Assembly: GCA_024684955.1 (NCBI GenBank)
Contig: JAIKWH010000034.1
Location: 1-63,230, forward strand
Direction of reading: 5' to 3'
Source: Pseudobutyrivibrio sp.
Lineage (GTDB): Bacteria; Bacillota; Clostridia; Lachnospirales; Lachnospiraceae
Length of the DNA: 63,230 nucleotides
Part shown: positions 28,949-61,268 of the stretch, one piece after another
Position numbering within the stretch: the first letter of the stretch is position 1
Layout of the letters: each line of letters starts with the position of its first letter
The notes under the pieces: model-generated
Seen by the model: the letters and a program-made list of their open reading frames with translations, nothing else
The model's database searches: none
What the model was told of the DNA's origin: nothing
Made by a program: the position numbers and the translations under genes

Positions 28949-29067
28949 ACTTCTTGTGGGCTACTTAAGGAAAAGCCCACAAGAACCTGGCTTTGCCAGG
29001 CAATATTTTCTTTCAGAAAATATTGGTCAAGCTCCGGTTTTTGATTTTCTGAGGAAAATCAAAAACC
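28949..29067 (+). ncRNA. Four-hairpin element, copy A (candidate structured RNA)
   Basis: Four consecutive hairpins. H1 is CTTGTGGGC/GCCCACAAG (28953-28983, 13-nt loop with ACTTAAGGAAAA). H2 is CCTGGC-ttt-GCCAGG (28986-29000). H3 is AATATTTTCT-ttc-AGAAAATATT (29002-29024). After a linker beginning GGTCAA comes H4, 14 perfect pairs closed by a TGAG loop (29036-29067). The initiation codon of a diguanylate cyclase follows 20 bases later. It is nearly identical to copy B and structurally equivalent to copy C. The strand is assigned by position before the downstream gene. An RNA is inferred; no transcript evidence exists here. Confidence 0.65.
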
Positions 29068-29086
29068 TAAACATTATTGGTGAGCC

Positions 29087-30238
29087 ATGTTTAATATAGA
29101 CGGATGGGTAGTGCTTAATTTCTTTACTGGTTTTCTTTTAGCACTACTTTTAATATTTCAACAGAATACTTCCAAACTTCAAAATGGTCGGAGATACACG
29201 GCCTTTCTAATGTTGACCCTCTTCCTGTTAATATCAGAATCCATAGGAAGAATCGGGGAGATTTACCCGGACAAGTATTTGATTTTAGCGAAAATTGGAT
29301 ATTTCTTTATATATCTATTGGACCCAGCGGATGTGGTCTTTGCCCTTTTTTATATTGATTCACTCATGGATCAAGGCAACGAAAGGCGAAGATATATCTT
29401 TAGGTCTACCTTTGAAATTTTGGCAACAATTAATATTATTGCAGTAACATTTTCTGTAGTATTTGATACCAAATGGTTCTATTATTTTGATGGAACAACT
29501 TATATACGAGGACCATACTTTTTGCTGCGCGCTGGCGGAATAATGGTAATGATGCTTTTCTTAAATATTTATGCCCTGGAATTCAAGGCTAATATTTTAA
29601 ACGACTATAGGAGGGCTGTTATTTACCTGCCGTCATTTTCCTTTGTGGGAGCTATTTTGCAGGTCTTCTTTGCAAATCTGGATACAACATATGCAGGCAT
29701 CTCCTTGGGATGCCTTATAGTATTTTTCTATATCCAAAATAGGAATGTAAATATAGATTACCTTACTGGAATTTACAATCGAAGGGGTCTGGACATTAGC
29801 ATGGAGGAGAAGGTCAAATGGAGCAAGTCTAATGGCCGGGATTTTTCTGCAGTGATGCTGGATGTGGATAATTTTAAAGTTATCAATGACAACTATGGTC
29901 ATGAGGCAGGAGATAAAGCCATTAAAGAACTGGCGGATATTCTTATTAAAGAGTATGATAAGGACAGTGTCATTGGCCGCTACGGTGGCGATGAGTTTTG
30001 CGTTATTACGGACAACACATCTAAACTGGAACTTGCTATTATCAATAGTAGGGTCGGGGACGAAGTTGAGATGATGTGTGTCAGAAACGGATGGCCAAAG
30101 ACTGTAGGCATCAGTTCGGGCTATCAGGTTTTCGACCATGAAAGCGACATGACAGCACCAGAATTTCAGCGGGTAATTGACACCTTGATGTACAGCGAAA
30201 AACAACAGCATCACATGACAAATTACATACATGAATAG
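29087..30238 (+). CDS. Membrane diguanylate cyclase (7TM-type + GGDEF)
   Basis: A 383-residue protein with about seven hydrophobic segments in residues 1-215, then a GGDEF domain (about 220-380). The active-site motif GRYGGDEFCVITD near 300 is intact, as are LTGIYNRRGL and the metal-binding Asp in VMLDVDNFK, so c-di-GMP synthesis is expected. The allosteric RxxD inhibitory site was not clearly seen. The Shine-Dalgarno is weak (GGTGAG). The start lies only 20 bases after the fourth hairpin of copy A, so that element would sit in the 5' leader. Confidence 0.9.
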   Translation: MFNIDGWVVLNFFTGFLLALLLIFQQNTSKLQNGRRYTAFLMLTLFLLISESIGRIGEIYPDKYLILAKIGYFFIYLLDPADVVFALFYIDSLMDQGNERRRYIFRSTFEILATINIIAVTFSVVFDTKWFYYFDGTTYIRGPYFLLRAGGIMVMMLFLNIYALEFKANILNDYRRAVIYLPSFSFVGAILQVFFANLDTTYAGISLGCLIVFFYIQNRNVNIDYLTGIYNRRGLDISMEEKVKWSKSNGRDFSAVMLDVDNFKVINDNYGHEAGDKAIKELADILIKEYDKDSVIGRYGGDEFCVITDNTSKLELAIINSRVGDEVEMMCVRNGWPKTVGISSGYQVFDHESDMTAPEFQRVIDTLMYSEKQQHHMTNYIHE

Positions 30239-30256
30239 GACTAAAAGGAGAGAATA

Positions 30257-31132
30257 ATGGAGCATACAATTGAAAATCAGTATCTAAAACTGACTGTAGT
30301 GGACAAGGGAGCAGAAATCAGATCCCTCATTAGAAAGTCGGATAAGAGGGAAATTATGTGGCAGGCTGACCCAAAATACTGGGGTAGAACATCCCCTGTT
30401 CTTTTCCCAATTGTAGGAAATTACTTGGACAAAAAGTCTATTTATAATGGCAAGACATACCAGATGAGTCAGCACGGTTTCGCCCGTGACATGGAATTTA
30501 CATTCCTTGCTCAAACAGATAATAGCCTTTCCTTCGAATTAAAGGAAACTGCTGAGACTCTGGAAAAATACCCATTCAGGTTTACCCTCACCATCACATA
30601 CACCCTAAATGAAAAGGAACTTTCTGTGGACTGGAAAGTAACTAACACAAATGATGGCACTATGTATTTTTCAATAGGCGGACATCCTGCCTTTAATTTG
30701 GACCTGGATACATACACAATTAGATTTGAGAAAGATGGCAAGCCAATCTCATCTTTCACTTCAAATCTAGTAGATATGAATACAGGCTGTCTTAAGAATG
30801 GCCAGAGCCAGGACCATACTACAGAAAATGGAATTCTCCATCTTTCTGATAAATTATTTGAGAATGATGCCCTAGTAGTGGAAGACCATCAGGCAGACCT
30901 TCTTACCATAGTAGATGACAAGGGAGCCGACCTGCTTTCTGTTACATGTCCTTGCCCACTATTTGGAGTGTGGACCCCTACAAATCTTCATGCACCATTT
31001 GTGTGCATAGAGCCATGGTGGGGCCGCTGCGATCGCTTGGGCTTCAACCAAAAACTGGAGGAGAGAGAGTATGGCAACACACTGGCTGCAGGAAAAGAAT
31101 TTAATGCAAGCTATGTAATCACAGTTTATTAA
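30257..31132 (+). CDS. Aldose 1-epimerase family protein (LacX/GalM-like)
   Basis: A 291-residue beta-sandwich mutarotase. Catalytic-type residues are His in GGHPAFN (about 138) and Glu in VCIEPWWG (about 250). The early motifs GRTSPVLFPIVGNY and SQHGFARDMEF match the YihR/LacX branch, which interconverts sugar anomers and sometimes binds sugar phosphates. AAGGAG precedes the ATG. It lies 18 bases after the diguanylate cyclase and ends at a strong terminator, just before the mannan genes. Confidence 0.88.
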   Translation: MEHTIENQYLKLTVVDKGAEIRSLIRKSDKREIMWQADPKYWGRTSPVLFPIVGNYLDKKSIYNGKTYQMSQHGFARDMEFTFLAQTDNSLSFELKETAETLEKYPFRFTLTITYTLNEKELSVDWKVTNTNDGTMYFSIGGHPAFNLDLDTYTIRFEKDGKPISSFTSNLVDMNTGCLKNGQSQDHTTENGILHLSDKLFENDALVVEDHQADLLTIVDDKGADLLSVTCPCPLFGVWTPTNLHAPFVCIEPWWGRCDRLGFNQKLEEREYGNTLAAGKEFNASYVITVY

Positions 31133-31164
31133 TAAGTTACAAATATAAACCCAATTAGATTCTA

Positions 31165-31190
31165 GGGGATGCCTAAGGGCATCCCTTTTT
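31165..31190 (+). terminator. Rho-independent terminator after aldose epimerase
   Basis: GGGATGCC (31166-31173) pairs with GGCATCCC (31178-31185) around a 4-nt loop and is followed directly by a run of Ts. Confidence 0.85.
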
Positions 31191-31337
31191 ATTTCCTCAA
31201 TTTGGAATCCATAGCTCACTTGTGCAAAGATTACAAATGAGGCTTTGCCACTATGGTGAAAATGGCAAAAAAAGGCAAAAGAGCAAGAATGGGTGAATAA
31301 TAGAAATTATCTGTGATGACTAATTATTCTACTTAAA

Positions 31338-31363
31338 TATAATAAGAATTGCTTAATTAAGCA
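31338..31363 (+). promoter_or_regulatory. Mannan-locus promoter with 14-bp palindromic operator candidate
   Basis: TATAAT at 31338-31343, about 55 bases before the binding-protein gene, is followed by the perfect palindrome TGCTTAATTAAGCA at 31350-31363, which would sit on the transcription start. A repressor site here would fit the LacI-family gene in the same unit. The -35 region is weak. The rest of the 31.19-31.40 kb gap shows only AT-rich sequence and an AAGGAGG ribosome site. Confidence 0.5.
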
Positions 31364-31395
31364 GATTAAAGCAATTAGTTTTAAGGAGGGTAAAT

Positions 31396-32823
31396 ATGAA
31401 ATTGAAAAGATGTATGGCGGCAGCACTTGCTGCAACAATGGCTATGTCTATGATGGCATGTGGCAGCCAGGAGGCTGCAGACCAGAGCCAGGCTGGGGGA
31501 ACAGATGTAAATGAGGCAACAGAGGACAGCACAGCAAGTGACGAGGGATTGTCTTACGCTAATATTACTCTTGGTGAGGATTACACTGATTTAAATGTGG
31601 AGATTTCCTTCTTGAATAATAGAACTGACCTTGATTCTGCAGAGTATGCTGGCAAAAAGTGGAGCGATTATTTCGCAGAGTTTAACCAGATGTATCCAGG
31701 AATCAAAATCAATCTTACAACAGATACAGATTATTCTGAGACAGCAAAGACTCACCTTCAGTCAGGAGATTATGAGACAGTTCTTATGATTCCTTCAATT
31801 GACAAGGTTGACCTTAGTTCTTACTTTATCTCATACGGCGATTTATTTGAGATGGACGAGCAGATCAATTACGCTTCACAGTGGTCATATGATGGCAAGG
31901 TTTACGGTGTGCCTATCACAGCAACTACTGAAGGTATTGTTTACAACAAGAGAGTGTTTGAGGAGGCAGGCGTAACAGAAATTCCAAAGACTCCAGAGGA
32001 ATTTATGGCAGCACTCAAGGCTATCAACGATTACAGCGATGACATCATCCCTATGTACACAAACTATGCAGCAGGATGGACAATGGGCGTTTGGGATGAC
32101 TACATTGGTATTACTGGTACAGGTGATGTTGATTATACTCAGCAGAAGTTCCTGCACACAGCAGAGCCATTCAAGGACTATGGTGATGACACACATGCCT
32201 ATGCAGTTTACAAGATTCTCTATGACGCTGTTGCAAATGGTTACACAGAGGATGACTATACAACAACTGACTGGGAAGGCTGCAAGGGCATGATTAACAA
32301 TGGACAGATTGGATGTATGGTACTTGGTTCTTGGGCATATCCACAGATGTGCGATGCAGGCGAGAATGCTGATGATATCGGTTACATGCCATTCCCTATT
32401 ACTGTAAATGGAAAGCAGTATGCTATCTCAGGCCCTGATTACACATTTGGTATCAACAAGAACGCCTCAGAGGATGAGCAGGCAGCTGCTATGGTATTTG
32501 TAAAGTGGATGACAGAGCAGTCACACTACTCATATGACCAGGGCGGTCTTCCAATTGCCAAGAAGGACACAGATACAAAACTTAGCATGGCAGGAGTAGA
32601 ACTGATGGAAGAATCTCCAGCCCTCATGGGAGAAGAGGACCTTCTCAACCTTCTCAATGCTGAGTCAGAACTTAATGTAAGATCTGGCGGAGACAGAAAA
32701 ATTCAGGAACTTATCGAGCATGCTGCAATTGGCGACATGACATTTGATGAGGTTATGCAGGAGTGGAACGACAAGTGGACTGCTGCTCAGGAAAGTGTTG
32801 GAGTAGAAATTACTAATGAATAA
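31396..32823 (+). CDS. ABC sugar solute-binding lipoprotein
   Basis: A 475-residue extracellular binding protein of the CUT1 type. The N-terminus has a lipoprotein signal ending in MMACG, with Cys22 as the likely lipidation site, then a Glu/Asp/Ser-rich linker. GVPITATTEGIVYNKRVFEEAGV and WEGCKGMINNGQIGCMVLGSWA are typical of carbohydrate-binding members. From the surrounding phosphorylases it probably binds beta-manno-oligosaccharides. It overlaps the first GH130 gene by eight bases. The matching permeases lie 3.5 kb further on, separated by two regulator genes. No ATPase is encoded nearby. Confidence 0.9.
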   Translation: MKLKRCMAAALAATMAMSMMACGSQEAADQSQAGGTDVNEATEDSTASDEGLSYANITLGEDYTDLNVEISFLNNRTDLDSAEYAGKKWSDYFAEFNQMYPGIKINLTTDTDYSETAKTHLQSGDYETVLMIPSIDKVDLSSYFISYGDLFEMDEQINYASQWSYDGKVYGVPITATTEGIVYNKRVFEEAGVTEIPKTPEEFMAALKAINDYSDDIIPMYTNYAAGWTMGVWDDYIGITGTGDVDYTQQKFLHTAEPFKDYGDDTHAYAVYKILYDAVANGYTEDDYTTTDWEGCKGMINNGQIGCMVLGSWAYPQMCDAGENADDIGYMPFPITVNGKQYAISGPDYTFGINKNASEDEQAAAMVFVKWMTEQSHYSYDQGGLPIAKKDTDTKLSMAGVELMEESPALMGEEDLLNLLNAESELNVRSGGDRKIQELIEHAAIGDMTFDEVMQEWNDKWTAAQESVGVEITNE

Positions 32824-34015
32824 ACCCTTAATAACATATTCTTCGGCTCCTGTATTGGAGCCGAGGGAGGGTTGTGATTGGGCAGACACAATGGTGCTCA
32901 ATCCGGCTCTCATTCAGACTGATGATGGAAAAATACACATGCTGTTCCGTTCTACAGGACCATGGCCCCAAAAGAATTTAAAAGGGATATCTGACCCCTA
33001 TCCTATATTCTTGGGCTATGCAGTAAGTACTGACGGGGGAGAACATTTCTGCCCTGACTTTACCCGACCTGCCCTTTCACCTAATCTGTCCTACCAACAG
33101 GATGGCATGTATATTTTTGACTTGAATGGAAATAAGGTTCTGAATTGGACCAATGGCTGTATTGAAGACCCTAGGATTTTTCAAATCCAAGGGGAGAATT
33201 ATCTGACTGTTGCCTGCAGGCTTTTCCCGCCCGGACCATACTGGGAGGGGGATAAGAGGCGTGACAACCTGCCTGACTGGGCTACAGATGAGAATAATCC
33301 TATAGGTCAAATTGCAGTGAGAAATGATACAGTCACTGTGCTACTAAAGTTGGATGTAGAAATGCTTTCTCAAGGAAAATACGACCAGGCTTTTAAGTAT
33401 GTGTGCCCTTTAACTGATGGTAATGTTTCCGACAACAGGGATGTATTTTTCTTTCCTAGAAAGATGAAGATAGACGGCAAGATGCAATATGTTATGTTGC
33501 ACAGACCTGAGGACCCGAGAAAATTTGGGGTGGAAGACCTTGATAAACCATCTATTATGATTGCAGCAGCAGAGCGTTTAGAGGACTTTGCAACAGGCAA
33601 GGCAAGTAACAAACTATTTGCAAAGGGAGAATTTGATTGGGAGGAGGAACGGGTAGGCGCCAGTTTCCCACCAATAGATTTAGGCCATGGCATGTGGTTG
33701 GTGTCATACCATGGCAAACAGTTGCCGGACTATGGATACACCCAGTCCTTTATGATTGTAAAGGAGGAGGAGAATAGCTTTCCTAAGATAATTCACAGAA
33801 TGTCTGAAAGACTGATTTATGCCAAGCAGGATTGGGAACTTCCTGATAAATTCCTGTGCCCTTGTATTTTTACAACCGGGGCAGTGGTTGATAAGGGAAG
33901 CCTCATAATGGGATATGGAGCAGCGGACCAGAAAATCGGCATAGCCAAGGTTAATCTAGATGAACTTGTGAACTATATCAAAACTTTTGACAGCCAAGGA
34001 AATAAAGTCAAATAG
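32816..34015 (+). CDS. GH130-family glycoside phosphorylase/hydrolase, divergent member
   Basis: A 399-residue five-bladed beta-propeller protein. NGCIEDPRIF near 105 carries the conserved catalytic Asp of GH130 (in EDPR), with a second match at PEDPRKFGVED. It is clearly unlike the other two GH130 proteins of the locus. Its subfamily is unclear to me; members act on beta-mannosides by phosphorolysis or, in some subfamilies, hydrolysis. It overlaps the binding-protein gene, so the two are translated from one message, and it probably acts on the sugar that protein imports. Confidence 0.75.
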   Translation: MNKPLITYSSAPVLEPREGCDWADTMVLNPALIQTDDGKIHMLFRSTGPWPQKNLKGISDPYPIFLGYAVSTDGGEHFCPDFTRPALSPNLSYQQDGMYIFDLNGNKVLNWTNGCIEDPRIFQIQGENYLTVACRLFPPGPYWEGDKRRDNLPDWATDENNPIGQIAVRNDTVTVLLKLDVEMLSQGKYDQAFKYVCPLTDGNVSDNRDVFFFPRKMKIDGKMQYVMLHRPEDPRKFGVEDLDKPSIMIAAAERLEDFATGKASNKLFAKGEFDWEEERVGASFPPIDLGHGMWLVSYHGKQLPDYGYTQSFMIVKEEENSFPKIIHRMSERLIYAKQDWELPDKFLCPCIFTTGAVVDKGSLIMGYGAADQKIGIAKVNLDELVNYIKTFDSQGNKVK

Positions 34016-34048
34016 GAATTGACAAAGTAAATAAGGAAAAATAGAATT

Positions 34049-34065
34049 AACTTAAACGATATAAC
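34049..34065 (+). promoter_or_regulatory. Candidate LacI-type operator upstream of the LacI gene
   Basis: AACTTAAACGATATAAC has a central CG and matches 36244-36260 (AACTTAAACGCTATAAT) at 15 of 17 positions. Both sit at the head of a transcription unit of the mannan locus and both overlap a TTAACTTAA or TATAA-type element. Autoregulation plus control of the permease operon is the simple reading. Confidence 0.5.
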
Positions 34066-34094
34066 TAATTAGCTAGCCGAAAGGGATTTACTTC

Positions 34095-35120
34095 ATGGAA
34101 CAGATTGTGAAATTAGCAGATATAGCAGAGGCTGTAGGTGTTAGCACCGTCTCAGTGTCAAAGGCCTTGTCAGGTCAAAAGGGCGTTAGTGACGAGATGC
34201 GGAAAAAGATAAAGGAAACAGCTGAAAAAATGGGCTATGTAAAGCCAGTAGCCACAAAGAAAACCAAGGTAAAAGAGGGTGGCTCCAATATTGGAATTCT
34301 CATGGCTGAGCGCTACGCCAGCAAATACACTTCCTTTTATTGGCACCTTTACCAAGAGGTTAGCAAGGCCGCTATGGACCAGGCTTGCTACACAATGTTC
34401 GAAATCGTTGACATCTCAGATGAAGAACAGAAGAAAATCCCAAAGATAGTTTTAGAGAATAAGGTAGATGGAATAATCGTCATAGGAAAAATGGACAGGG
34501 ATTACTTGGCCAATTTTCAGAAAAAGTACGATATCCCTACTGTTTATCTTGATTTTTATGATGACATGGAGGTGGCAGATGCTGTTATTTCCAACAGTTT
34601 CTATGGAGAGTATCTACTTTGCAATTTCTTGCACAACCTAGGCCATGAAAAGATTGCCTTTGTTGGTACTGTTGGGGCAACCAAGAGTATTACCGATAGA
34701 TATTTAGGTTATAGAAAATGCCTGATTGAGAATGATATCGAATTTAAAAAGGATTATGTTATTGAGGATAGAGATCAGTCCAACAGCCGTATGGTTGAGG
34801 AGGACAAGATAAAGATGCCAAAGGACATGCCTACTGCATTTGTCTGCAACTGCGACCTTACTGCTGCCTATGTAATTAATCGGCTGCAAAAAGATGGATA
34901 CAGGGTTCCGGAGGACATATCCGTTGTGGGATTCGATGATTTTCTCTTCCCCGGCTTATGTAATACAGGCATCACAACCTACGAGGTCAACATGACAGAC
35001 ATGGCCAGGATCTCCATAGAAAAGGTCATTAATAAAATATCAAATCCCAATTACAAACCAGGGGTCTTCATCGTGGAAGGCCAGTTGATTGAGAGGGATA
35101 GTACAGCTCCTGTAAAATAG
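34095..35120 (+). CDS. LacI-family transcriptional regulator
   Basis: A 341-residue repressor. The N-terminal helix-turn-helix VKLADIAEAVGVSTVSVSKALSGQKGVSD and the hinge lead into a periplasmic-binding-protein-like effector domain with VDGIIVIGKMDRD, GHEKIAFVG and ISVVGFDDFLFPG. It probably senses a mannan-derived sugar or sugar phosphate and controls the flanking mannan genes. Its last codons form the left arm of a terminator hairpin, and its 3' end overlaps that of the convergent AraC gene by 53 bases. Confidence 0.92.
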   Translation: MEQIVKLADIAEAVGVSTVSVSKALSGQKGVSDEMRKKIKETAEKMGYVKPVATKKTKVKEGGSNIGILMAERYASKYTSFYWHLYQEVSKAAMDQACYTMFEIVDISDEEQKKIPKIVLENKVDGIIVIGKMDRDYLANFQKKYDIPTVYLDFYDDMEVADAVISNSFYGEYLLCNFLHNLGHEKIAFVGTVGATKSITDRYLGYRKCLIENDIEFKKDYVIEDRDQSNSRMVEEDKIKMPKDMPTAFVCNCDLTAAYVINRLQKDGYRVPEDISVVGFDDFLFPGLCNTGITTYEVNMTDMARISIEKVINKISNPNYKPGVFIVEGQLIERDSTAPVK

Positions 35121-35979
35121 GGGCTGTATTTTTTTTATAATTAAGTGGCGTTGTGCCAGTGAATTTTTTAAAGGTATTAATAAAGTGATTTATGTTTTCA
35201 AATCCCACAGCAAGGCCAATCTGGGTCACTGTCTGGTCTGTGGTAAAGAGCAATTCCTTTGCCCTGTCGATTCTCCTTTGGTTAATAAACTGTATAGGGC
35301 TGGTTCCATATTCTTTTTTAAATTCTCTACAAATCCTGTATTTGTTCACCCCAAACTCATCCTCCAGCATGTCTAGGGTTAGGTTTTTGGCATAGTTGGT
35401 CTCTAACATTGTCTTTATTGTTTTGATGGCCTTGGTAACCCTTTTCTTGTCAGTTTCTGTAGAAACTCCCAAAAGGGAAAACTCCACAAGAATATCCGTT
35501 ATCCACTTGGCAAAAAACAGGTCCTCCCGATCGCTTGGGGAAAATTCATTTCTCCCGTGGCCAAGGCTACATATACAGTCAACCAAAGCTGGGCTCTGAG
35601 ATGCTGGAGAAAGTTTAAAAATTTTGCCTCCCTTTTCAGCCAAAAGGGCCATAGGCCACTTCCCCTCAAAGGTAATTGCATTAAAGTTCCAGGCTGGAGT
35701 AATGGCAGCCAGGGTGTACTCACTTTTTCCCTGGGATAAAAAGAGGCTGCCTGGCTCTGCCTCAAATGCCTGGTCCTCAGTTTCAATCTGGCCCTTGCCT
35801 GAGATTGTATAAATCAAAAGGATGGAATCTTTGCTGGAGAATCTATAGAGGTCTGGCTTTCTGGCTGGGACCTGACCACAGAATAGGAGATGACAAAATT
35901 CCAGTGGTCTCTCCTTTACATTACGACTTAAAAATAAAGATTTGCTTTTTGTATTGCTTAACATATAACTTAACCTCAT
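35068..35979 (-). CDS. AraC-family transcriptional regulator
   Basis: A 303-residue regulator. The N-terminal cupin-like sugar-sensing half contains YTISGKGQIETEDQAFEAEPGSLFL. The C-terminal pair of helix-turn-helices contains LTLDMLEDEFGVNKYRICREFKKEYG and the family signature VTQIGLAVGFENINHFINTFKKFTGTTPLNY near 250-285. It is transcribed against the mannan genes and its 3' end reads into the LacI gene. It is divergent from the permease operon, sharing a 330-base regulatory gap, so it probably activates that operon. Confidence 0.9.
   Translation of the reverse strand: MRLSYMLSNTKSKSLFLSRNVKERPLEFCHLLFCGQVPARKPDLYRFSSKDSILLIYTISGKGQIETEDQAFEAEPGSLFLSQGKSEYTLAAITPAWNFNAITFEGKWPMALLAEKGGKIFKLSPASQSPALVDCICSLGHGRNEFSPSDREDLFFAKWITDILVEFSLLGVSTETDKKRVTKAIKTIKTMLETNYAKNLTLDMLEDEFGVNKYRICREFKKEYGTSPIQFINQRRIDRAKELLFTTDQTVTQIGLAVGFENINHFINTFKKFTGTTPLNYKKNTAPILQELYYPSQSTGLPR
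35102..35136 (+). terminator. Terminator overlapping the 3' end of the LacI gene
   Basis: TACAGCTCC (35102-35110) pairs with GGGGCTGTA (35120-35128), including one G-T pair, and is followed by eight Ts. The left arm is coding sequence of the LacI gene, and the whole hairpin also lies within the convergent AraC gene. Confidence 0.8.
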
Positions 35980-36312
35980 ATAACTTAGTTAATTAATTAT
36001 TTAAGATTCTACACTAAATTTAACTAAATAACAAATGCAATTAAGTTAAGTTTCTAAAATTAATCAGATTATTAACTAAGAATTCAAACTTGATAATCCC
36101 AGAGAAATTGCCCCAAACACAGATAAAAACCCTTGATTATACAAGGTAACTAAAAGGCTAAAAGGATAATTGTACACTTTGCCAGTTTGTCCAATCTCTG
36201 CAATATAGAATGAATAACTACAAGATACTTTAGTGACTAAATAAACTTAAACGCTATAATGAAATTAACTTAATTGAAGAAGAGAAATAAAGAATGAAAG
36301 GTGAATGTTTTT
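35980..36312. promoter_or_regulatory. Divergent regulatory gap between AraC gene and permease operon
   Basis: A 333-base AT-rich gap with no gene. It holds repeated TTAACTTAA/TTAAGTTAA half-sites, including the 12-bp inverted pair CAATTAAGTTAA (36038-36049) and TTAACTTAATTG (36265-36276), and further ATAACTTA copies beside the AraC start. AACTTAAACGCTATAAT (36244-36260) combines the shared operator motif with a TATAAT -10. AAAGGTGA at 36297-36304 is the ribosome site for the ATG at 36313. Confidence 0.55.
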
Positions 36313-39317: not shown

Positions 39318-39318
39318 T

Positions 39319-50742: not shown

Positions 50743-50789
50743 GTAAGTCTTTGATATATTGTATTTATCACATTTAGGAGGTAATTTTT

Positions 50790-53600: not shown

Positions 53601-53606
53601 AAAATA

Positions 53607-53784: not shown

Positions 53785-54870
53785 ATGTCCTTTAGGGAGA
53801 AGGTAGTCAGTCTTTTTTTGAAAGATATTGACGACAAAAATGATACAAAAAAGCCAGCCCTGTTGATGAGATTTTTCACAACAGACATGGTTATATTACT
53901 TCTAATACATCTTGTAATATTTTTGGTCTATGGCCATCACGTCACAGCTCTTTTGGCAATTATCGCAGCATGTGTTTTTACTTTAATATTCTACGGCACA
54001 TACACTAAATACCTAAAGACTCAATATGTCATTACGGTTTTAGGAGCCTATATATGGATTCTCACCAGTGTTTTCATCTACGGTTGGGACGCAGGTATCC
54101 AGCATTTTCTTTATGTGCTTTTGGTATTTGCATTTATGGCGGGCCGCATTAACATCTATCTAAAGATTGCTTTCTCAGTATTCTTGTGCGCCACCAGAAT
54201 TGCCCTTTTTTGGTACACAGACCACTATGACCCATATATAACACTAGATCCAGCAGAAAACATTTTGTTGCAATTGGCCAACACAATCTCAATCTTTGTC
54301 ATTCTCACATGCCTTGTTACAGTTTTTAGTCAGGATCAGCTTTCTATGGAGAAAAAACTAATAGATTATAACAAGCAGGTAAAGGAGCAGGCTTCCATTG
54401 ACCCTTTGACTGGCCTCATCAATAGACGAGCCACTATGGAGAGAGTCCATGGGGACAATTTCCGCAGCAAGGATAATGATTTTAGAAACATCGCCATCGG
54501 CGATATTGATTTCTTCAAACGAGTAAATGATACCTATGGTCATGCCACCGGTGATGAGTTGCTTATCCAATTGGCCCAGATGTTTACAGCGGCAGTTGGC
54601 AGCAAAGGCTTTGTAGCCCGCTGGGGTGGAGAGGAGTTTCTCTTTGTTCTCTTTGACATGAATGGGGATCAGGCTCTGGAGCTTCTCACAAAACTCCGCC
54701 GGGACATTGAACTCAATACCTTTGTATGCAAGGGAATCAATATTAAAGTTACCATGACCTTTGGACTGACAGAGTGGGACCCAAAAGATGACTTTGCAAA
54801 AGTCACTGCTGACGCAGACAAAAATCTATACACAGGAAAGAATTCTGGACGCAACCAAGTTGTGTTTTAA
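53785..54870 (+). CDS. Membrane diguanylate cyclase (GGEEF)
   Basis: A 361-residue protein with about six hydrophobic segments (residues 20-190) followed by a GGDEF domain. The active site reads ARWGGEEFLFV near 280, and LTGLINRRATM plus GDIDFFKRVNDTYGH are intact, so it should make c-di-GMP. The ATG at 53785 is preferred to a TTG at 53758 because GGGGGAGAGG lies just before it. It lies 12 bases before a HAD phosphatase gene in a two-gene unit that ends at a terminator beside copy B of the four-hairpin element. Confidence 0.88.
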   Translation: MSFREKVVSLFLKDIDDKNDTKKPALLMRFFTTDMVILLLIHLVIFLVYGHHVTALLAIIAACVFTLIFYGTYTKYLKTQYVITVLGAYIWILTSVFIYGWDAGIQHFLYVLLVFAFMAGRINIYLKIAFSVFLCATRIALFWYTDHYDPYITLDPAENILLQLANTISIFVILTCLVTVFSQDQLSMEKKLIDYNKQVKEQASIDPLTGLINRRATMERVHGDNFRSKDNDFRNIAIGDIDFFKRVNDTYGHATGDELLIQLAQMFTAAVGSKGFVARWGGEEFLFVLFDMNGDQALELLTKLRRDIELNTFVCKGINIKVTMTFGLTEWDPKDDFAKVTADADKNLYTGKNSGRNQVVF

Positions 54871-54882
54871 CGAGGGGAATTA

Positions 54883-55527
54883 ATGGAAGGAATAAAGGCT
54901 GTACTATTTGATTTAGATGGCACCCTGACTGACACTGAAAAATACTATCAGAAGGCATGGCCCATTGCTATGAGCCACTTTGGCTACACTATGACCAATG
55001 ACCAGTTTTTACAGATTAGGTCACTGGGCAGACCTTTTGCCACAGAACAATTCAAGGAATGGTACGGCCAGGACTTTGACTATTGGCAGGTTCGCAATTA
55101 TAGAAAAGAATTAATTGAGGAAATGTTTAAGGACGGTATCCCTCTAAAGCCAGGGGCAGTGGAGATTCTCACCTGGCTAAAGGAAAGGGGATATACTATC
55201 ACTCTTGTTACAGCCAATGACAAGGAAAGGGCCACAAGATACTTAAAAAAGATTGGACTTTATGAATACTTTGATGAACTGGCCTGTGCCGACATGGTAA
55301 AGCAGGGCAAACCGGCTCCTGATATTTACCAGCATGCCTGCCAGATGCTTGGGGTAAAGCCAGAGGAGACAGTGGCAGTGGAGGATTCACCAAATGGAAT
55401 CAGGTCCTGCTATGGAGCAGGATGTCATCCTATTATGATTCCGGACTTGTCCCAGCCTGATGAGGAATTAGAAAAATTGCTCTATGCCAAACTGGACTGC
55501 CTCTTAGATTTAAAAAATATTCTCTAG
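54883..55527 (+). CDS. HAD-family hydrolase (beta-phosphoglucomutase/phosphatase-like)
   Basis: A 214-residue HAD protein. The nucleophile motif LFDLDGTLTDTEKYY (about 8), VTANDKERA (motif II, about 108), KQGKPAPDIY (Lys, about 143) and VEDSPNGI (acidic motif, about 166) are complete. Relatives include beta-phosphoglucomutase and sugar-phosphate phosphatases; the substrate cannot be read from sequence. CGAGGGGAA precedes the ATG. Confidence 0.88.
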   Translation: MEGIKAVLFDLDGTLTDTEKYYQKAWPIAMSHFGYTMTNDQFLQIRSLGRPFATEQFKEWYGQDFDYWQVRNYRKELIEEMFKDGIPLKPGAVEILTWLKERGYTITLVTANDKERATRYLKKIGLYEYFDELACADMVKQGKPAPDIYQHACQMLGVKPEETVAVEDSPNGIRSCYGAGCHPIMIPDLSQPDEELEKLLYAKLDCLLDLKNIL

Positions 55528-55538
55528 ATGCTTGTTTT

Positions 55539-55566
55539 AAACAGACCCATTAGGGTCTGTTTTTTT
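55539..55566 (+). terminator. Rho-independent terminator after the HAD gene
   Basis: AACAGACCC pairs with GGGTCTGTT around ATTA and is followed by Ts. Copy B of the four-hairpin element starts within a few bases of it. Confidence 0.88.
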
Positions 55567-55569
55567 ATG

Positions 55570-55689
55570 ACTTCTTGTGGGCCACTTAAGGAAAAAGCCC
55601 ACAAGAACCTGGCTTTGCCAGGCAATATTTTCTTTCAGAAAATATTGGTCAATGTCCGGTCCTTGATTTTCTGAGGAAAATCAAAAACC
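55570..55689 (+). ncRNA. Four-hairpin element, copy B (candidate structured RNA)
   Basis: Same architecture as copy A. H1 is CTTGTGGGC/GCCCACAAG (55574-55605, 14-nt loop CACTTAAGGAAAAA), H2 CCTGGC/GCCAGG (55608-55622), H3 AATATTTTCT/AGAAAATATT (55624-55646), linker starting GGTCAA, and H4 (55658-55689) with a TGAG loop. H4 has two C-A mismatches where copy A has T-A pairs. It lies between a terminator and the iron-transporter promoter. The strand is shown as for copy A. Confidence 0.65.
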
Positions 55690-55708
55690 TATAAATCAAA
55701 AAAATGAG

Positions 55709-55817
55709 TTGCAAGTGACTAACCAAGTGTATATAATATGAAAACGTAGGTTAGACGCGGCTAACAAATACTTTTGATGACTAACAATAACTTTACAAGT
55801 CTAACTAGTCATATAAT
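55709..55817 (+). promoter_or_regulatory. Iron-importer promoter with repeated CTAAC/GTTAG operator half-sites
   Basis: TTGCAA (55709-55714) and TATAAT (55732-55737) are spaced by 17 bases. The region carries GACTAAC (55717-55723, in the spacer), GTTAG-N6-CTAAC (55750-55765, just after the expected start), GACTAAC (55779-55785) and GTCTAAC (55799-55805). A second TATAAT sits at 55812. The GTTAG/CTAAC pattern resembles DtxR/IdeR/MntR-type metal-repressor sites. The strong GGAGGAAA ribosome site follows. Confidence 0.6.
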
Positions 55818-55838
55818 ACTCAAACCGGAGGAAACATT

Positions 55839-56900
55839 ATGGGAAAAAGATTTTTAACAAGTATATTAGCAATGACACTTGGGGTTGCAATGCTTTCTGC
55901 ATGTGGCAAAGAGACAAGTGTAGATACAGCTGATACCAAGCAAGAAAGTGCTGATACAGATGAAAGCGCTCAGGAAAAGGTGGACCAGTCTGCTTATCCA
56001 ATAGAGATTGAGACAGCATTTGGTACTGTTACTATAGATGAAAAGCCAGAGAGGATTGCCACAGTAGGTTGGGCTAATCATGATATTCCAATTGCCCTAG
56101 GTGTTACCCCAGTAGGTGTCTCAAAGGCAAATTATGGTTTACTGGATGACAATGGACTTTTATTCTGGTCAAATGATGGACTAAAAGCAATCGGCGAAGA
56201 GGAACCAGTTGTTTTTGATGATGTAGATGGAATTGATTTTGAGGCAGTGGCTGCAGTGGAGCCAGATGTAATCCTTGCAGCATATTCAGGAATCACTCAG
56301 GAAGAGTATGATACATTGAGCCAGATTGCTCCAGTGGTTGCCTACGAATCACAGCCATGGGCGACAGATTGGAGAACAATGACCCGCCTTGACTCAAAGG
56401 GCATGGGCATGGAGGCAGAGGGTGAGGCCCTTATCAGTGAGGTTGAAGCCTTTATTGATGAGCAGCTGGCCCAGTATCCAGACATGGAAGGCAAGACAGC
56501 CGCTTTCGTTTACTTTGACCCAACAGATCTTGGCTCCTTCTATGTATATACAAGCCTTGATCCAAGAGCACTTTTCTTAAATGACTTGGGTCTTACAATC
56601 CCTGAGGAAGTAAAGGCTATTGATGATGGTACATCATTTACAATTAGCATCTCATCTGAGAATATCGACCTCCTAAAGAATCTTGATTTGATTATTACCT
56701 ATGGTGATGATACAACCCTTGCAGCCCTCCAGGCTGATTCCCTTGTTAGCCAGGTTCCAGCAGTGGCAAATGGGGCAGTGGTAGTTATGGACAACAATTC
56801 AGCAATCGCAGCCAGCTGCACACCTAGCCCACTTTCAATCAAGGCTACATTACCAGAATATCTAGAAATGATTAACCAGGCTCTTTCTAATGCAAAATAA
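55839..56900 (+). CDS. Iron/siderophore-type ABC solute-binding lipoprotein
   Basis: A 353-residue class III binding protein. The lipoprotein signal ends LSACGKE, with Cys22 as the likely lipidated residue, followed by an acidic linker. The PERIATVGWANHDIPIALGVTPVGVS stretch and GIDFEAVAAVEPDVILAAYSGIT are typical of FecB/BtuF-like metal-chelate receptors. The ligand is inferred from the family and from the metal-repressor-like operator upstream. Its 3' end overlaps the first permease gene by 11 bases. Confidence 0.9.
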   Translation: MGKRFLTSILAMTLGVAMLSACGKETSVDTADTKQESADTDESAQEKVDQSAYPIEIETAFGTVTIDEKPERIATVGWANHDIPIALGVTPVGVSKANYGLLDDNGLLFWSNDGLKAIGEEEPVVFDDVDGIDFEAVAAVEPDVILAAYSGITQEEYDTLSQIAPVVAYESQPWATDWRTMTRLDSKGMGMEAEGEALISEVEAFIDEQLAQYPDMEGKTAAFVYFDPTDLGSFYVYTSLDPRALFLNDLGLTIPEEVKAIDDGTSFTISISSENIDLLKNLDLIITYGDDTTLAALQADSLVSQVPAVANGAVVVMDNNSAIAASCTPSPLSIKATLPEYLEMINQALSNAK

Positions 56901-57894
56901 TAGTTTAAATAATAAAAAGTTAATACTTTTCATAGTGGCAAGTCTCATGCTTTTGGGACTTGCTCTTGTGCTTTCGTTGATACTAGGTTCCAAGGACATT
57001 AGCCTGGCAGAACTTTTTAGTAAAGATAGTGAGAATGCCCTGGCAGGACCAATCTTTGAGAAGAGAATCATGAGGACAGTCCTTGGGATAATGGCTGGAT
57101 TTGCCCTAAGTATTGCCGGTGTTTTGATGCAGGCAATCACCAAAAATCCAATTGCTGATCCCTCTATCATAGGCATTAATTCAGGGGCAGCCTGCACTGT
57201 AGTGGCAGCAATTGCCATATTGGGAATTAATTCTTCTATAGAATATATAATCTTTGCCCTGATAGGGGCAGCTCTTACAGCGTGCTTTGTTTATTGCATA
57301 GCTATGGTGGCAGGAGGGGGAAAGGTTGGTCCTGTTGGATTGGCCTTGGCCGGTGCGGCCACTTCCACAGCATGCTCTTCTGTGGTTTCTTTAATCATGC
57401 TTCCAAATATGAATGTTATGGAGCAGTACAGATTCTGGTCAGTGGGCAGCATAAAGGCCAGCTCTTGGGACAACATAATGGTGGTTTTGCCATTTATCCT
57501 TGCTGGAATTTTTATAGCCCTGATTCTCATTCCATCCCTGAATGTGTTGACCCTAGGGGATGAAACCGCTACAGGCCTAGGAGTAAATGTGCCCCTAATC
57601 AAGGCAGCAGGGATTTTGGCATCAGTCCTTTTGTGCGGGGCAACCACAGCCATCGCAGGACCAATTGGATTTTTGGGACTGATGATTCCACATTTTGTGA
57701 GAATTATTATTGGAGGGGACTTTAAGACTTTGATTCCCCTGTCGGCTATAAACGGGGCCTCCCTCCTTTTGCTATCAGATGTGGCAGGCAGGGTGATTGG
57801 CCGTCCCGGAGAATTGGAAGTAGGAGTGGTGACTGCTTTCTTAGGGGCTCCAGTTTTCATACTACTAGTTGTAAAGGGCAGGGCAATCAAATGA
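56890..57894 (+). CDS. FecCD-family ABC permease 1
   Basis: A 334-residue multi-spanning permease (about ten helices) of the iron-chelate/B12 type. RIMRTVLGIMAGFALSIAGVLMQAITKNPIADPSIIGINSGA and GPIGFLGLMIPHFVRIIIG are family signatures, the latter forming the ATPase contact. It overlaps the binding-protein gene upstream and shares an ATGA overlap with the second permease. Confidence 0.93.
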   Translation: MQNNSLNNKKLILFIVASLMLLGLALVLSLILGSKDISLAELFSKDSENALAGPIFEKRIMRTVLGIMAGFALSIAGVLMQAITKNPIADPSIIGINSGAACTVVAAIAILGINSSIEYIIFALIGAALTACFVYCIAMVAGGGKVGPVGLALAGAATSTACSSVVSLIMLPNMNVMEQYRFWSVGSIKASSWDNIMVVLPFILAGIFIALILIPSLNVLTLGDETATGLGVNVPLIKAAGILASVLLCGATTAIAGPIGFLGLMIPHFVRIIIGGDFKTLIPLSAINGASLLLLSDVAGRVIGRPGELEVGVVTAFLGAPVFILLVVKGRAIK

Positions 57895-58883
57895 GAACAA
57901 GAAAGAAAAAAGAAATATCAGTCCTTATTATACTTTTCATAGGTGTCCTTATTCTTGGATTTTTTATGCTTTCCCTTGGTGAAAGTAATTATGACCTGGC
58001 AACTGTTGTAAAGGTGCTTATGGGGCAGGAGATAAAGGGGGCAAGTTTTGCAGTTATGAGTCTCAGGCTGCCAAAACTTATTATTGGCATCCTGGCAGGA
58101 ATTGCCTGCGGGGTGGCAGGTAATACATTTCAGGTCATTATGAAAAACCCACTGGCCAGCCCAGATGTAATGGGTGTTACATCTTCGGCGGGAGCCATGG
58201 CGGTTTTTGCTATTTTGATACTTGGTTTGGAAGGCGTGGCGGTGTCTGCATTTGCAATTGCAGGGGGAGTGCTGGTTGCTGTTATAATATTTTCATTTGC
58301 TAGAGGCAATGGTTTTTCTATCAATAAGGCAATCCTTATGGGAATAGGAATCCAGGCCATGATGCAGGCTTTAATTACATTTATACTGCAGCAGGCAAAC
58401 GCTTACGACCTTTCAAAGGCAATGCATTGGCTGTCTGGATCACTTAATTCAGCCAAACTGTCAGGGGCAGGAGGATTTTTCATTACAGTTTTAATTCTCA
58501 CTTGCTTTATCCAATATCGCACCAAGGAACTAAAGGTGCTCAGCCTGGGGGAAGAATTGCCAGTGACCCTTGGTGTGAATATTGACAGGGAGAGAATTGT
58601 TTTGCTTATGGCCTCAGTGATTATGGTTTCCGTTGCAACAGCCTATGTGGGACCTTTGGCCTCAGTGTCATTTATGGCAGGTCATATCACTAGGAGAATC
58701 ATAAAAACAGGTGGTGTTTACAGTTTGCAGGCGGGACTTATGGGGGCCATCATTGTGCTCTCATCAGAACTGATTGGCCAAAATGCCTTTGCAATTAGAT
58801 TCCCGGTTGGGGTAATCACCGGTATCATCGGTGCCCCATATCTCATATATTTACTTTTAAGTATTAGAAACAAAAGAGGTTAA
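57891..58883 (+). CDS. FecCD-family ABC permease 2
   Basis: A 330-residue partner permease. LRLPKLIIGILAGIACGVAGNTFQVIMKNPLASPDVMGVTSSAG and YVGPLASVSFMAGHITRRI match the family. It forms the heterodimeric channel with permease 1 and lies three bases before the ATPase gene. Confidence 0.93.
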   Translation: MRTRKKKEISVLIILFIGVLILGFFMLSLGESNYDLATVVKVLMGQEIKGASFAVMSLRLPKLIIGILAGIACGVAGNTFQVIMKNPLASPDVMGVTSSAGAMAVFAILILGLEGVAVSAFAIAGGVLVAVIIFSFARGNGFSINKAILMGIGIQAMMQALITFILQQANAYDLSKAMHWLSGSLNSAKLSGAGGFFITVLILTCFIQYRTKELKVLSLGEELPVTLGVNIDRERIVLLMASVIMVSVATAYVGPLASVSFMAGHITRRIIKTGGVYSLQAGLMGAIIVLSSELIGQNAFAIRFPVGVITGIIGAPYLIYLLLSIRNKRG

Positions 58884-58886
58884 GTT

Positions 58887-59726
58887 ATGAATATACATAC
58901 TCTCCAAGCAAAAAATCTAAAGGCTGGATACAATAAAACAGTGATTATAGATGGAATAGATGTAACAATTCCTTCCAACAAAATTTCTGTTATTATTGGG
59001 TCAAACGGCTGCGGAAAGAGCACCCTTTTAAAGAATTTTGCCAGGCTGATAAAGCCCTTTGATGGTGAGATACTTTTGGATGGAGCCGGCTATGACAAGA
59101 TGCACAGCAAAGATTTGGCAAAGATAATCGGCTTGCTGCCACAGTCTCCAATGGTGCCAGAGAGCATCACAGTATATGACCTGGTGGCCAGAGGACGTTA
59201 TCCTTATCAAAAGCCATTTTCTCAGTTGACATCAGAGGACCAGGAAGCCATAGAGGAGGCTATGGAAATGATGGGAGTTAGCAAACTTAGAGATCAGTTT
59301 GTGGAGGAACTGTCCGGAGGACAGAGACAGAGAGTTTGGATTGCCATGGCCCTGGCCCAGCAGACAGACATTCTCTTTTTGGACGAGCCAACTACATTTC
59401 TTGATATTTCTTATCAGGTGCAGATTTTGGAACTTTTAAAAAACCTCAACGAGAAAAAGGGCACCACAATTGTTATGGTTCTCCATGATATAAACTTGGC
59501 ATCAAGATATGCAGATTGCCTCTTTGCTATGAAAAATGGTGAGTTGATTGCAGCAGGTAGCCCTGAGGATATCCTAAATGAAGAATTGATGCTTAGGGTG
59601 TTTAATCTAGAGTGCATTCTCATGAAAGACCCAGTTTCTGGTTCCCCATTTATAGTGCCTAAAGGAAGGGCTCACCTAAGGCCAGAATCCCAGGATGAGG
59701 GGAAGAAAATATCCCAAGTGGTGTAG
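58887..59726 (+). CDS. ABC transporter ATP-binding protein (FecE/FepC-like)
   Basis: A 279-residue ATPase. Walker A GSNGCGKSTL is near 37, Q-loop LLPQSP near 83, signature LSGGQRQRVWIAMAL near 140, Walker B ILFLDEPTTFLD near 161 and the switch His in VLHDIN near 195. It energises the two permeases. The 224-base gap after it (59727-59950) shows no clear hairpin terminator, only AT-rich sequence and the next ribosome site. Confidence 0.95.
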   Translation: MNIHTLQAKNLKAGYNKTVIIDGIDVTIPSNKISVIIGSNGCGKSTLLKNFARLIKPFDGEILLDGAGYDKMHSKDLAKIIGLLPQSPMVPESITVYDLVARGRYPYQKPFSQLTSEDQEAIEEAMEMMGVSKLRDQFVEELSGGQRQRVWIAMALAQQTDILFLDEPTTFLDISYQVQILELLKNLNEKKGTTIVMVLHDINLASRYADCLFAMKNGELIAAGSPEDILNEELMLRVFNLECILMKDPVSGSPFIVPKGRAHLRPESQDEGKKISQVV

Positions 59727-59950
59727 TGGACAAGTCCAGGTAAGTGTTTAAGAAGTTAGTTATAGCACGACTGAATTGTTGCTATTTGATACTTATCTAT
59801 AACATTTATGCCAGAATTTTATCATTGTTGCCAATGGACTACTCATGCTTTATTATCTACAATTAAAATGTTGGAGAACTTTTTAAAGTTTTATTTTTAG
59901 ATAATAGGGTCTTCTATTTATGGAAGCTGCTTTTTTTGTAGGAGTAAAAG

Positions 59951-61135
59951 ATGCAGGGTTCACTAATCGATGATGTAATGCTTGCCATGGAGAGACACGA
60001 AATACAAGCTTATTATCAACCACAATATGACGTTAGAAATGGTAGCCTAGTCAGTGCAGAGGCCTTGGTTAGGTGGCAGAGGCAGGACGGTACAGTTCTA
60101 CCTCCTAGCGACTTTATACCAGAGTTGGAGCAGTCTATTGCAATCAATTCACTGGATTGGTTCATTGTTGAAGATGTTTGCAAAACCCTGGTCAATCTTG
60201 GAGAAAATGCAGTTCCTGTTGCCGTCAATTTTTCCAGATGGCACGTAAAAGAAAATAATTTCGTCGACATTCTCGATAGTATTCTCGAGGAATACCAAGT
60301 ATCAAAAAATTTAATTGAAATTGAGATTACAGAATCTGCTTTCACGCTTAATCATGACGATGTGGCTGCCTGGGCAAACAAAATTGCCGACAGAGGTTAT
60401 TCAATCGCCATTGATGATTTTGGAAGTGGTCTTTCATCTATTCAATATGTAAAGGACTTGCCTATTAGCGTCCTAAAAATCGATAAGACATTTCTTGACG
60501 GCAATTGCCAATCCCCTAAGGGTCGCAAAATATTAGAGGGTATCATAAACTTTGCCCACACCATAGGACTGACTAGTGTTGTGGAGGGGGTGGAGACTGT
60601 TGAGCAGTTAAAGTTTGTTCAGATTTGCGGTGCCACAAAGTTTCAGGGATACTTGTTCTCAAAGGCTGTTGATCAGTTGACTTTTATGAGACTTGCCATT
60701 AGAAACAATAGATATGCTGTTGATATGTCTGACATTCTCGTGACACAGGATATCCATAGCTCGGCCAAATTGCTTATTTCAGCCCTTTTCAAAGAATTTC
60801 CATTTGTTGTATATGGCAACCTGTCAAAGAATTCATACTGCTTCCTTTCAGAGGAGCATTTTACTTTTGAGACTGTGACCCAAACCGGAGAGTACGACAA
60901 ACTCTATGAGGAAGGCTTGGAAATCCGTGAGGGAGATGACAGAAAGGCCTTTGAAGTTTTTGAGCGACACGCTATGATTGCTGCCTATGAAAGTGGCCAG
61001 GAAGAGGTAAAGGTCCGCACCAGGATGAAGATGGCTGATGGCTCAGTGCAATTAGTTGAGACCAAAAACTACTTTGTAAAGAGTCCATCCTCAGATGACA
61101 TTCTGATTGTAGGCTTTAACACAGTTATAGAATAA
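59951..61135 (+). CDS. EAL-domain c-di-GMP phosphodiesterase with C-terminal PAS-like region
   Basis: A 394-residue cytoplasmic protein. The EAL domain (1-240) keeps its catalytic set: SAEALVRW (Glu37), VAVNFSR (Asn), EIEITES (Glu), IAIDDFGSG (two Asp), VLKIDK (Lys), VVEGVET (Glu) and KFQGYLFSKAV (Gln). It should hydrolyse c-di-GMP to pGpG. Residues about 260-394 form an alpha/beta sensor-like region I would call PAS-like. AGGAGT precedes the ATG. Copy C of the four-hairpin element begins about 12 bases after its stop. Confidence 0.92.
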   Translation: MQGSLIDDVMLAMERHEIQAYYQPQYDVRNGSLVSAEALVRWQRQDGTVLPPSDFIPELEQSIAINSLDWFIVEDVCKTLVNLGENAVPVAVNFSRWHVKENNFVDILDSILEEYQVSKNLIEIEITESAFTLNHDDVAAWANKIADRGYSIAIDDFGSGLSSIQYVKDLPISVLKIDKTFLDGNCQSPKGRKILEGIINFAHTIGLTSVVEGVETVEQLKFVQICGATKFQGYLFSKAVDQLTFMRLAIRNNRYAVDMSDILVTQDIHSSAKLLISALFKEFPFVVYGNLSKNSYCFLSEEHFTFETVTQTGEYDKLYEEGLEIREGDDRKAFEVFERHAMIAAYESGQEEVKVRTRMKMADGSVQLVETKNYFVKSPSSDDILIVGFNTVIE

Positions 61136-61146
61136 TTTATAGTTAT

Positions 61147-61268
61147 GACTTTTTGCTGACCCAATAATGAAATTGTCAGCAAAAATCCTGCTTCGCAGGA
61201 CAACTTTTCCATTGCATGTAAAAGTTGGTCAGGTACGATTCTTGTTTTTCTGATGAAAAACAAGAATC
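61147..61268 (+). ncRNA. Four-hairpin element, copy C, diverged with compensatory changes
   Basis: H1 is TTTTTGCTGAC/GTCAGCAAAAA (61150-61185, 14-nt loop CCAATAATGAAATT). H2 is TCCTGC-ttc-GCAGGA (61186-61200). H3 is CAACTTTT/AAAAGTTG (61201-61227). After the linker GTCAGGTAC comes H4, 14 perfect pairs with a TGAT loop (61237-61268). Hairpin order, H2 and H4 pair counts, loop sizes and the flanking TATGACTT match copy B, while most stem bases differ. H4 differs from copy A at three pairs, each compensated. It occupies the gap between the convergent EAL and response-regulator genes. Confidence 0.65.

What the first reader, a model, noticed from the sequence alone, without database searches (positions are those of the whole stretch)
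28949..61268. Three-copy four-hairpin element with compensatory base changes, a candidate undescribed structured RNA
Copies at 28949-29067, 55570-55689 and 61147-61268 share one layout: a stem with a 13-14-nt loop, a 6-bp stem with a triloop, an 8-10-bp stem, a short GTCA-containing linker, and a 14-position stem with a TGAG/TGAT loop. A and B are near identical. C keeps the folds with different stem bases: in H4, three pairs differ from copy A and all three are compensated, and H1 is rewritten yet pairs over 11 bp. The H1 loop keeps TAA-n-GAAA (TAAGGAAA in A and B, TAATGAAA in C). Retained pairing despite sequence change points to selection on structure rather than on protein or simple duplication. 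I do not recognise it as a known riboswitch or RNA family, though I could not search.
Basis: partly seen in the sequence, partly recalled or inferred. Interest (0 to 1): 0.85.

Follow-up and report, generated by a model that had tools for sequence, protein, structure and literature searches.

The report
Mobile four-hairpin DNA repeat in Pseudobutyrivibrio
The three matching hairpin clusters are copies of a short, gene-free mobile DNA repeat scattered through gut and rumen bacteria; its folded shape has been kept while the letters changed, apparently as DNA rather than as a working RNA.

Summary
In detail: copies A (28948-29068), B (55569-55690) and C (61147-61269) fold alike, far better than shuffles, and C keeps the stems with changed bases. 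The reading as an RNA gene is only partly supported. The three belong to a dispersed family: 21 full copies in this draft genome, matches in 26 of 29 genomes of the genus (Pseudobutyrivibrio) and 0 of 70 other genomes in that search. One 123-nt sequence sits at 14 unrelated sites in 9 species. Copies enter pre-existing AT sites in a symmetric A-tract/T-tract target, probably duplicating 2 bp. Diverged relatives with strong covariation occur in 9 of 17 listed genomes of a second Lachnospiraceae genus. G-U wobbles are no commoner than A-C mismatches, gene orientation is mixed, and no replication-strand bias was seen; this fits selection on DNA shape. GAC before H1 pairs with GTC after H3, so the first three hairpins form a four-way junction in most Pseudobutyrivibrio copies. 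Best reading: a non-autonomous, MITE-like transposon moved in trans by an unidentified enzyme; IS200-type and IS110-type transposases do not track it. No Rfam match; no description in the papers searched.

The parts
28948..29068 (+). Copy A of the element (GAC...CCT); flanking dinucleotides GC (28946-28947) and AA (29069-29070) are not the usual AT, so possibly an old copy
28948..28950 (+). Copy A: GAC, 5' side of the closing helix (partner GTC 29026-29028)
28951..28985 (+). Copy A hairpin H1 (arms 28951-28961 and 28975-28985), loop TACTTAAGGAAAA
28986..29000 (+). Copy A hairpin H2 (6 bp, triloop)
29001..29025 (+). Copy A hairpin H3
29036..29067 (+). Copy A hairpin H4 (14 bp, TGAG loop)
28904..28945 (+). 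Degenerate H1-only copy directly upstream of A
   Evidence: (match 28903-28934)
55569..55690 (+). Copy B of the element, flanked by AT on both sides; lies 3' of an intrinsic-terminator-like hairpin (55539-55562)
55572..55607 (+). Copy B H1 (arms 55572-55582 and 55597-55607)
55608..55622 (+). Copy B H2
55623..55647 (+). Copy B H3
55658..55689 (+). Copy B H4 (two mismatched positions)
61147..61269 (+). Copy C of the element (second subfamily); left flank AT, right flank AG
61150..61185 (+). Copy C H1 (arms 61150-61160 and 61175-61185), rewritten stem
61186..61200 (+). Copy C H2
61201..61227 (+). Copy C H3
61237..61268 (+). Copy C H4 (14 bp, TGAT loop)
61268..61270 (-). TAG stop codon of the response-regulator/AraC-type gene 61268-62353(-), supplied by the right end of copy C

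Best explanation
The three copies belong to a non-autonomous mobile DNA repeat of about 122-124 bp (MITE-like) that carries no gene. Shown by sequence: it is dispersed, recently copied, inserted into pre-existing sites, and its hairpins have been kept through compensatory change in two genera. Inferred: a transposase encoded elsewhere makes a two-base staggered cut, usually at AT, in a symmetric target (A-tract, nn, T-AT-A, nn, T-tract) and joins an element running from GAC (AGG in a subfamily of the second genus) to CCT, duplicating the dinucleotide. Inferred: the enzyme, or a partner, reads the folded DNA (H1-H3, in most Pseudobutyrivibrio copies as a four-way junction closed by GAC/GTC, plus hairpin H4) rather than a long terminal inverted repeat, which would explain why shape outlasts sequence. 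Inferred from comparing copies: they decay by losing whole hairpins between short repeats at the hairpin bases. The element mostly sits between genes and sometimes supplies a stop codon at its right end (TAG on the minus strand) or left end (TGA).
For: Copies: 9 full or near-full by BLAST plus partial copies; 21 full by covariance model in 2.26 Mb; 26 of 29 genus genomes and 0 of 70 others, with stricter filters. Recent spread: one 123-nt sequence in 14 copies in 9 species with mean flank identity about 0.3, another 8 times in one genome, while the window gene beside copy B is 66-69% identical across species. Unoccupied sites: one in a different dispersed repeat, intact forms of which include window 28491-28576; L043/L037, L044/L159, L046/L139, L181/L160 and an intact tandem copy in L211. 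L181 has GT on both sides and its empty site a single GT; L201 has AC on both sides. Target: 113 of 154 copies flanked AT/AT; A 0.64-0.68 at L-4/L-5 mirrors T 0.64-0.66 at R+5/R+6, background 0.32-0.34. Structure: 482 double-change cells against 137 in shuffles; second genus 416 against 136. DNA level: G-U 59 against A-C 116, 18 against 21, tRNA control 14 against 0. 153 of 154 copies are not inside an ORF of 100 aa or more, orientation mixed; flank GC skew 79 positive, 65 negative of 148, p 0.28.
Against: No transposase or autonomous partner was found. The 2-bp duplication rests on few sites: of 26 copies with a non-AT left end only 2 have the same dinucleotide on the right, which 8% of shuffles reach; in L046 the left side is GT, the right side and the empty site AT. 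Terminal inverted repeats are poor in Pseudobutyrivibrio copies. Some copies (e.g. L051, L052) lack the GAC/GTC helix; it pairs in 79.6% of cells in one set and 76.5% in the second genus, so the junction is not universal. Copies are related, so mismatch counts are not independent; the tRNA control is small and ARAGORN itself selects for pairing; the TwoAYGGAY control (3 G-U, 2 A-C) does not separate RNA from DNA. A few antisense or shifted matches are in the counts. An additional RNA role is not excluded.
Confidence: 0.75

Rival explanations
1. A structured RNA (sRNA or cis element) spread by duplication and kept for its RNA function.
For: Strong covariation, a conserved H1 loop (TAA-n-GAAA; AAGGAAAA in the second genus) and a TACGG/TCCGG motif before H4. 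No Rfam match, so it could be undescribed. Promoter-like matches exceed shuffles somewhat at A and B (4 against 1.3 and 1.4, sd 1.3 and 1.2; some lie inside the element, on both strands), not at C (1 against 0.7).
Against: G-U not favoured over A-C; gene contexts +E+ 63, -E- 46, -E+ 21, +E- 9, one-sided 14, inside 1 of 154; identical copies at unrelated sites and empty sites.
Confidence: 0.12
2. A REP/RAYT- or IS200/IS605-type element moved as single-stranded DNA by a Y1 (HUH) transposase that reads hairpins.
For: Hairpins at both ends, no long inverted repeats, short size, intergenic.
Against: Y1_Tnp is in only 10 of 29 genomes and absent from near-complete copy-rich ones such as G021 and G018; no element at the 18 Y1 loci, one weak hit at E 0.017 apart; symmetric target and no strand bias.
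Confidence: 0.1
3. Derivative of an IS110-type (DEDD, RuvC-like) element, whose insertions share a 2-bp core and need a structured RNA (features recalled, not looked up).
For: AT on both sides looks like a shared core; a four-way junction would suit a RuvC-like enzyme (inference).
Against: Strong IS110 hits are absent from the own genome, G004, G017, G021, G025 and G027, all rich in copies; their only hits are 21-29 bits, in frames of about 1,420-1,520 aa, and G027 has none. Four of the six are drafts of 77-94% completeness or less certain coverage, so single absences could be gaps.
Confidence: 0.04
4. Transcription terminators or mRNA-stabilising hairpins.
For: Near 3' ends of some genes; the simple scan calls H2 (A, B, and C on the minus strand) and H4 (C) terminator-like, above shuffle means.
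Against: T runs after the stems are short or interrupted; copies lie in both orientations; mobility; copy B begins after an existing terminator-like hairpin.
Confidence: 0.04

Closest known systems
Bacterial MITEs such as RUP (S. pneumoniae) and Correia/NEMIS (12 passages each of PMC2229807 and PMC3049150 seen)
   Same: Under 200 bp, no gene needed, mostly A+T-rich, intergenic, inserted into one another, target duplication, thought to be moved in trans
   Different: Most have terminal inverted repeats and TA at the ends; here the terminal repeat is weak (TTnTTG), the centre of the target is AT, and there are four separate hairpins, three of them usually in a four-way junction
REP/REPIN palindromes with RAYT transposases (abstract and two passages of PMC3733652; start of the abstract of PMC3116915 in a listing)
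   Same: Dispersed hairpin DNA, intergenic; CGTC-tagged REPs also lack a known dedicated transposase
   Different: REPs are 20-40 bp with a GTAG or CGTC tag; no Y1 transposase tracks this family
CIR repeats of Caulobacter/Brucella (passages of PMC2229807)
   Same: No terminal inverted repeat; the 5' and 3' parts form separate stem-loops
   Different: Other phylum; not compared by sequence here
Structured RNAs of Rfam
   Same: Compensatory base changes in several stems
   Different: No match; mobile; no G-U preference

Membership tests
Bacterial MITE (RUP/NEMIS kind) | Short, gene-free, many copies at unrelated sites | tested here: met
Bacterial MITE (RUP/NEMIS kind) | Target-site duplication | tested here: inconclusive
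   AT/AT in 113 of 154; GT/GT copy with single-GT empty site; AC/AC copy; 24 of 26 non-AT left ends unmatched
Bacterial MITE (RUP/NEMIS kind) | Terminal inverted repeats | tested here: inconclusive
   Only TTnTTG in Pseudobutyrivibrio; ATAGG/CCTAT in one subfamily of the second genus
Bacterial MITE (RUP/NEMIS kind) | Ends shared with an autonomous element | tested here: inconclusive
   End-pattern searches of 3 genomes; the 12 orphan-end loci inspected were mini, truncated or diverged copies, no gene-bearing element seen
REP/RAYT | Associated Y1 (RAYT) transposase | tested here: not met
REP/RAYT | GTAG or CGTC tag beside a 20-40 bp palindrome | tested here: not met
   about 124 nt with four hairpins; TACGG/TCCGG/TACAG before H4 instead
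IS110 derivative | IS110 transposase in genomes with many copies | tested here: not met
Rfam structured RNA | Match at gathering score | tested here: not met
Functional structured RNA | G-U tolerated above A-C in varying pairs | tested here: not met
   controls 92 (separates) and TwoAYGGAY in 90 (does not)
Functional structured RNA | Discrete transcript | not testable with these tools
   no RNA data
Intrinsic terminator | G+C-rich stem followed by a T run | tested here: inconclusive
   scan calls H2 or H4 terminator-like above shuffle means, but T runs are short or interrupted

The most novel reading that the evidence does not exclude
A class of transposable elements of Lachnospiraceae that is recognised by the shape of its folded DNA (a cloverleaf-like junction of three hairpins plus a terminal hairpin) by an uncharacterised recombinase, so that stems drift freely in sequence as long as they pair, across at least two genera.
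Probability: 0.25. Interest if true: 0.8.

Novelty: new variant of a known kind. Interest (0 to 1): 0.55.

Why it matters
Covariation is widely taken as a mark of functional RNA. Here a mobile DNA repeat shows strong covariation without the G-U excess expected of RNA, so it is a possible trap for RNA discovery, and counting G-U against A-C is a simple check. If an enzyme reads the folded DNA, this is a structure-directed transposition system with no known transposase. Cultured strains that carry copies are named (for example P. xylanivorans DSM 14809, P. ruminis DSM 9787, Pseudobutyrivibrio sp. MD2005), so it can be tested.

Tried and rejected
Known RNA families: none at gathering score on any element; permissive hits on copy A and on one locus of the second genus were far below the gathering scores. 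IS200/Y1 partner: rejected as the common mover. IS110 partner: likewise. Insertion into the loop of an existing palindrome: flanks of 154 Pseudobutyrivibrio copies are not more complementary than shuffled ones. Replication-strand preference: not seen. A gene that travels with the element: none found; a PD-(D/E)XK-like paralogue family is near 10 element loci but in no fixed geometry by my reading of the coordinates, and had no match in the 31 loci of the second genus. Viral contigs (exact H1 pattern), plasmids and phages (blastn of copy B): no match. Literature: searches (4 papers, unrelated by title and abstract start; none; 3, likewise unrelated) found no description; preprints and most subscription papers are not held.

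Rows dropped and limits: searches use 197 aligned matches (160 distinct) that pair in 75% or more of cells, some of them antisense or shifted; (copies) and 102 use the 154 of these with a GAC/GAG/GAT start, a CT-like end and 40-base flanks. The closing helix and one H4 column (fixed C-A in many copies) are left out of 59 against 116; with that column the totals are 62 against 174. A7 has 32 rows, 30 distinct, among them two truncated and one antisense match. One search printed 22 junction alignments; several are element self-similarity or the reverse strand of the same site, and only those named are used. One search scored at most 35 candidates a genome and its list was cut, so copy numbers are lower bounds. 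One search left out 6 of 154 copies for short flanks.
Full report
What was checked. Trimmed to GAC...CCT, each folds by minimum energy into a closing helix GAC/GTC, three hairpins with no unpaired base between them, a short linker, and hairpin H4, which in B has two mismatched positions. The energies are far below shuffles. On nine own-genome copies the structure pairs 96.8% of cells, 13 of 45 pairs change on both sides, and sliding the partners by 1-3 columns leaves no double change.

It is a dispersed family. BLAST of copy B in the own genome gives nine full or near-full copies plus fragments such as H1 alone, H4 alone or the element without H3. A covariance model (R1) finds 38 matches at E 0.001 or better, 21 of them full-length at 99 bits or more; some of the rest are partial or antisense. 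Over 99 genomes, 26 have matches, all among the 29 of the same genus. An exact H1 pattern finds 69 stretches in named genomes, all titled Pseudobutyrivibrio, Butyrivibrio fibrisolvens 16/4 or an unnamed Lachnospiraceae bacterium.

It moves. Among 154 filtered copies from 24 genomes, one 123-nt sequence occurs 14 times in 9 genomes and another 8 times in one genome (10 in all). Mean flank identity among identical copies is about 0.3; one pair in the second group shares a right flank at 0.95. The window gene next to copy B is 66-69% identical across species, while many listed element copies are 90-96% identical to copy B (list cut). One copy lies inside a second dispersed repeat, intact forms of which include window 28491-28576. 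Other empty sites are L043/L037, L044/L159, L046/L139, L181/L160 and an intact tandem copy within L211. In L043, L044, L211 and L063 the element has AT on both sides and the empty site one AT; in L181 it is GT, GT and GT; in L046 the left side is GT while the right side and the empty site are AT.

The target is symmetric. In the 154 copies the left flank is A-rich at positions -4 to -8 with T at -1, and the right flank mirrors this with A at +2 and T at +5 to +9. Left and right flanks are not complementary copy by copy beyond shuffles, so this is a site preference, as expected of a two-fold symmetric enzyme, not a palindrome that was entered. The element strand shows no bias with flank GC skew (79 against 65 of 148), unlike what a lagging-strand, single-strand mechanism might be expected to leave.

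The fold is kept in a second genus. A model from 117 matches (R2) searched in 200 genomes of the family hits the own genome, one congener and one other genome, G243. Among relatives of G243, 9 of 116 genomes match, all within its own genus, of which 17 genomes are listed. Folded alone, 13 of the 25 copies shown give all four hairpins by my reading; the others lack or rearrange one or more, and two are truncated. One subfamily is again about 121-125 nt with mostly AT flanks, ATAGG...CCTA ends, an AAGGAAAA-type loop in H1 and TACGG before H4; it has no GAC/GTC helix. In G243 the core sits inside a longer intergenic repeat with a long outer stem whose sequence differs between loci; several relatives show the same left flank. 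Across 30 distinct rows 94.3% of cells pair and 416 cells are double changes (shuffles 136). This alignment was fitted to the model, which favours the structure; the independent folds are a partial safeguard.

DNA rather than RNA. On one strand, RNA selection tolerates G-U but not A-C; on DNA both are mismatches. Counts are 59 G-U against 116 A-C in Pseudobutyrivibrio (one fixed C-A column left out; 62 against 174 with it) and 18 against 21 in the second genus. Nine tRNAs from the loci give 14 against 0; a single TwoAYGGAY RNA gives 3 against 2 and does not discriminate. Copies are not independent and the controls are small, so this is an indication, not a proof. Of 154 copies, 153 are not inside an ORF of 100 aa or more, and they lie in all gene orientations. 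Against this reading, promoter-like matches near A and B are about two standard deviations above shuffles.

Decay and effects on genes. H4-only forms join the left end straight to H4 at a shared TTCTTG, H1-only forms join at a shared AACCT, and one copy lacks H3. Loss between short repeats at hairpin bases is what slipped replication across hairpins gives (general knowledge). The right end supplies TAG to 15 minus-strand ORFs and the left end supplies TGA to three; copy C ends the gene 61268-62353 in the window.

What is not known. The enzyme. Y1 and IS110 transposases are missing from several copy-rich genomes. Other transposase families were not tested. The most economical class is a DDE enzyme with a 2-bp stagger, but that is inference.

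Verdict. It is a mobile DNA repeat family, apparently undescribed as far as the searches here reach, closest to bacterial MITEs, and unusual in its four-way junction, its strong covariation across genera and the lack of a known mover.

Noticed in passing
window 28491-28576 and from 28739; also L009, L014, L023: A second dispersed repeat family (CATTCCGCGACGCATRTGCGTTTGC...AAATACCGGAAT; two pattern matches in the window); one element copy is inserted in it.
   Followed up: partly
window 21437-21596 (-): TwoAYGGAY RNA (RF01731), 68 bits, the only Rfam match at gathering score in the window.
   Followed up: no
L161:2125-2961, L041:254-1060, L202:181-987 and 7 others: A diverging family of about 270-aa proteins, PD-(D/E)XK-like by motif (my reading), with 1-11 copies in 28 of 29 genomes, no Pfam match in 6 scanned and C-terminal similarity to PADLOC PDC-S68, lies near ten element loci. 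A rough estimate, not computed in a call, suggests more than chance.
   Followed up: partly
L353, L355-L359 (second Lachnospiraceae genus): The same core embedded in a longer intergenic repeat whose long outer stem has locus-specific but complementary arms; no Rfam match.
   Followed up: partly
window 61268-62353 (-): The stop codon of a response-regulator/AraC-type gene is provided by the element; the HTH domain match ends two residues before the end.
   Followed up: no
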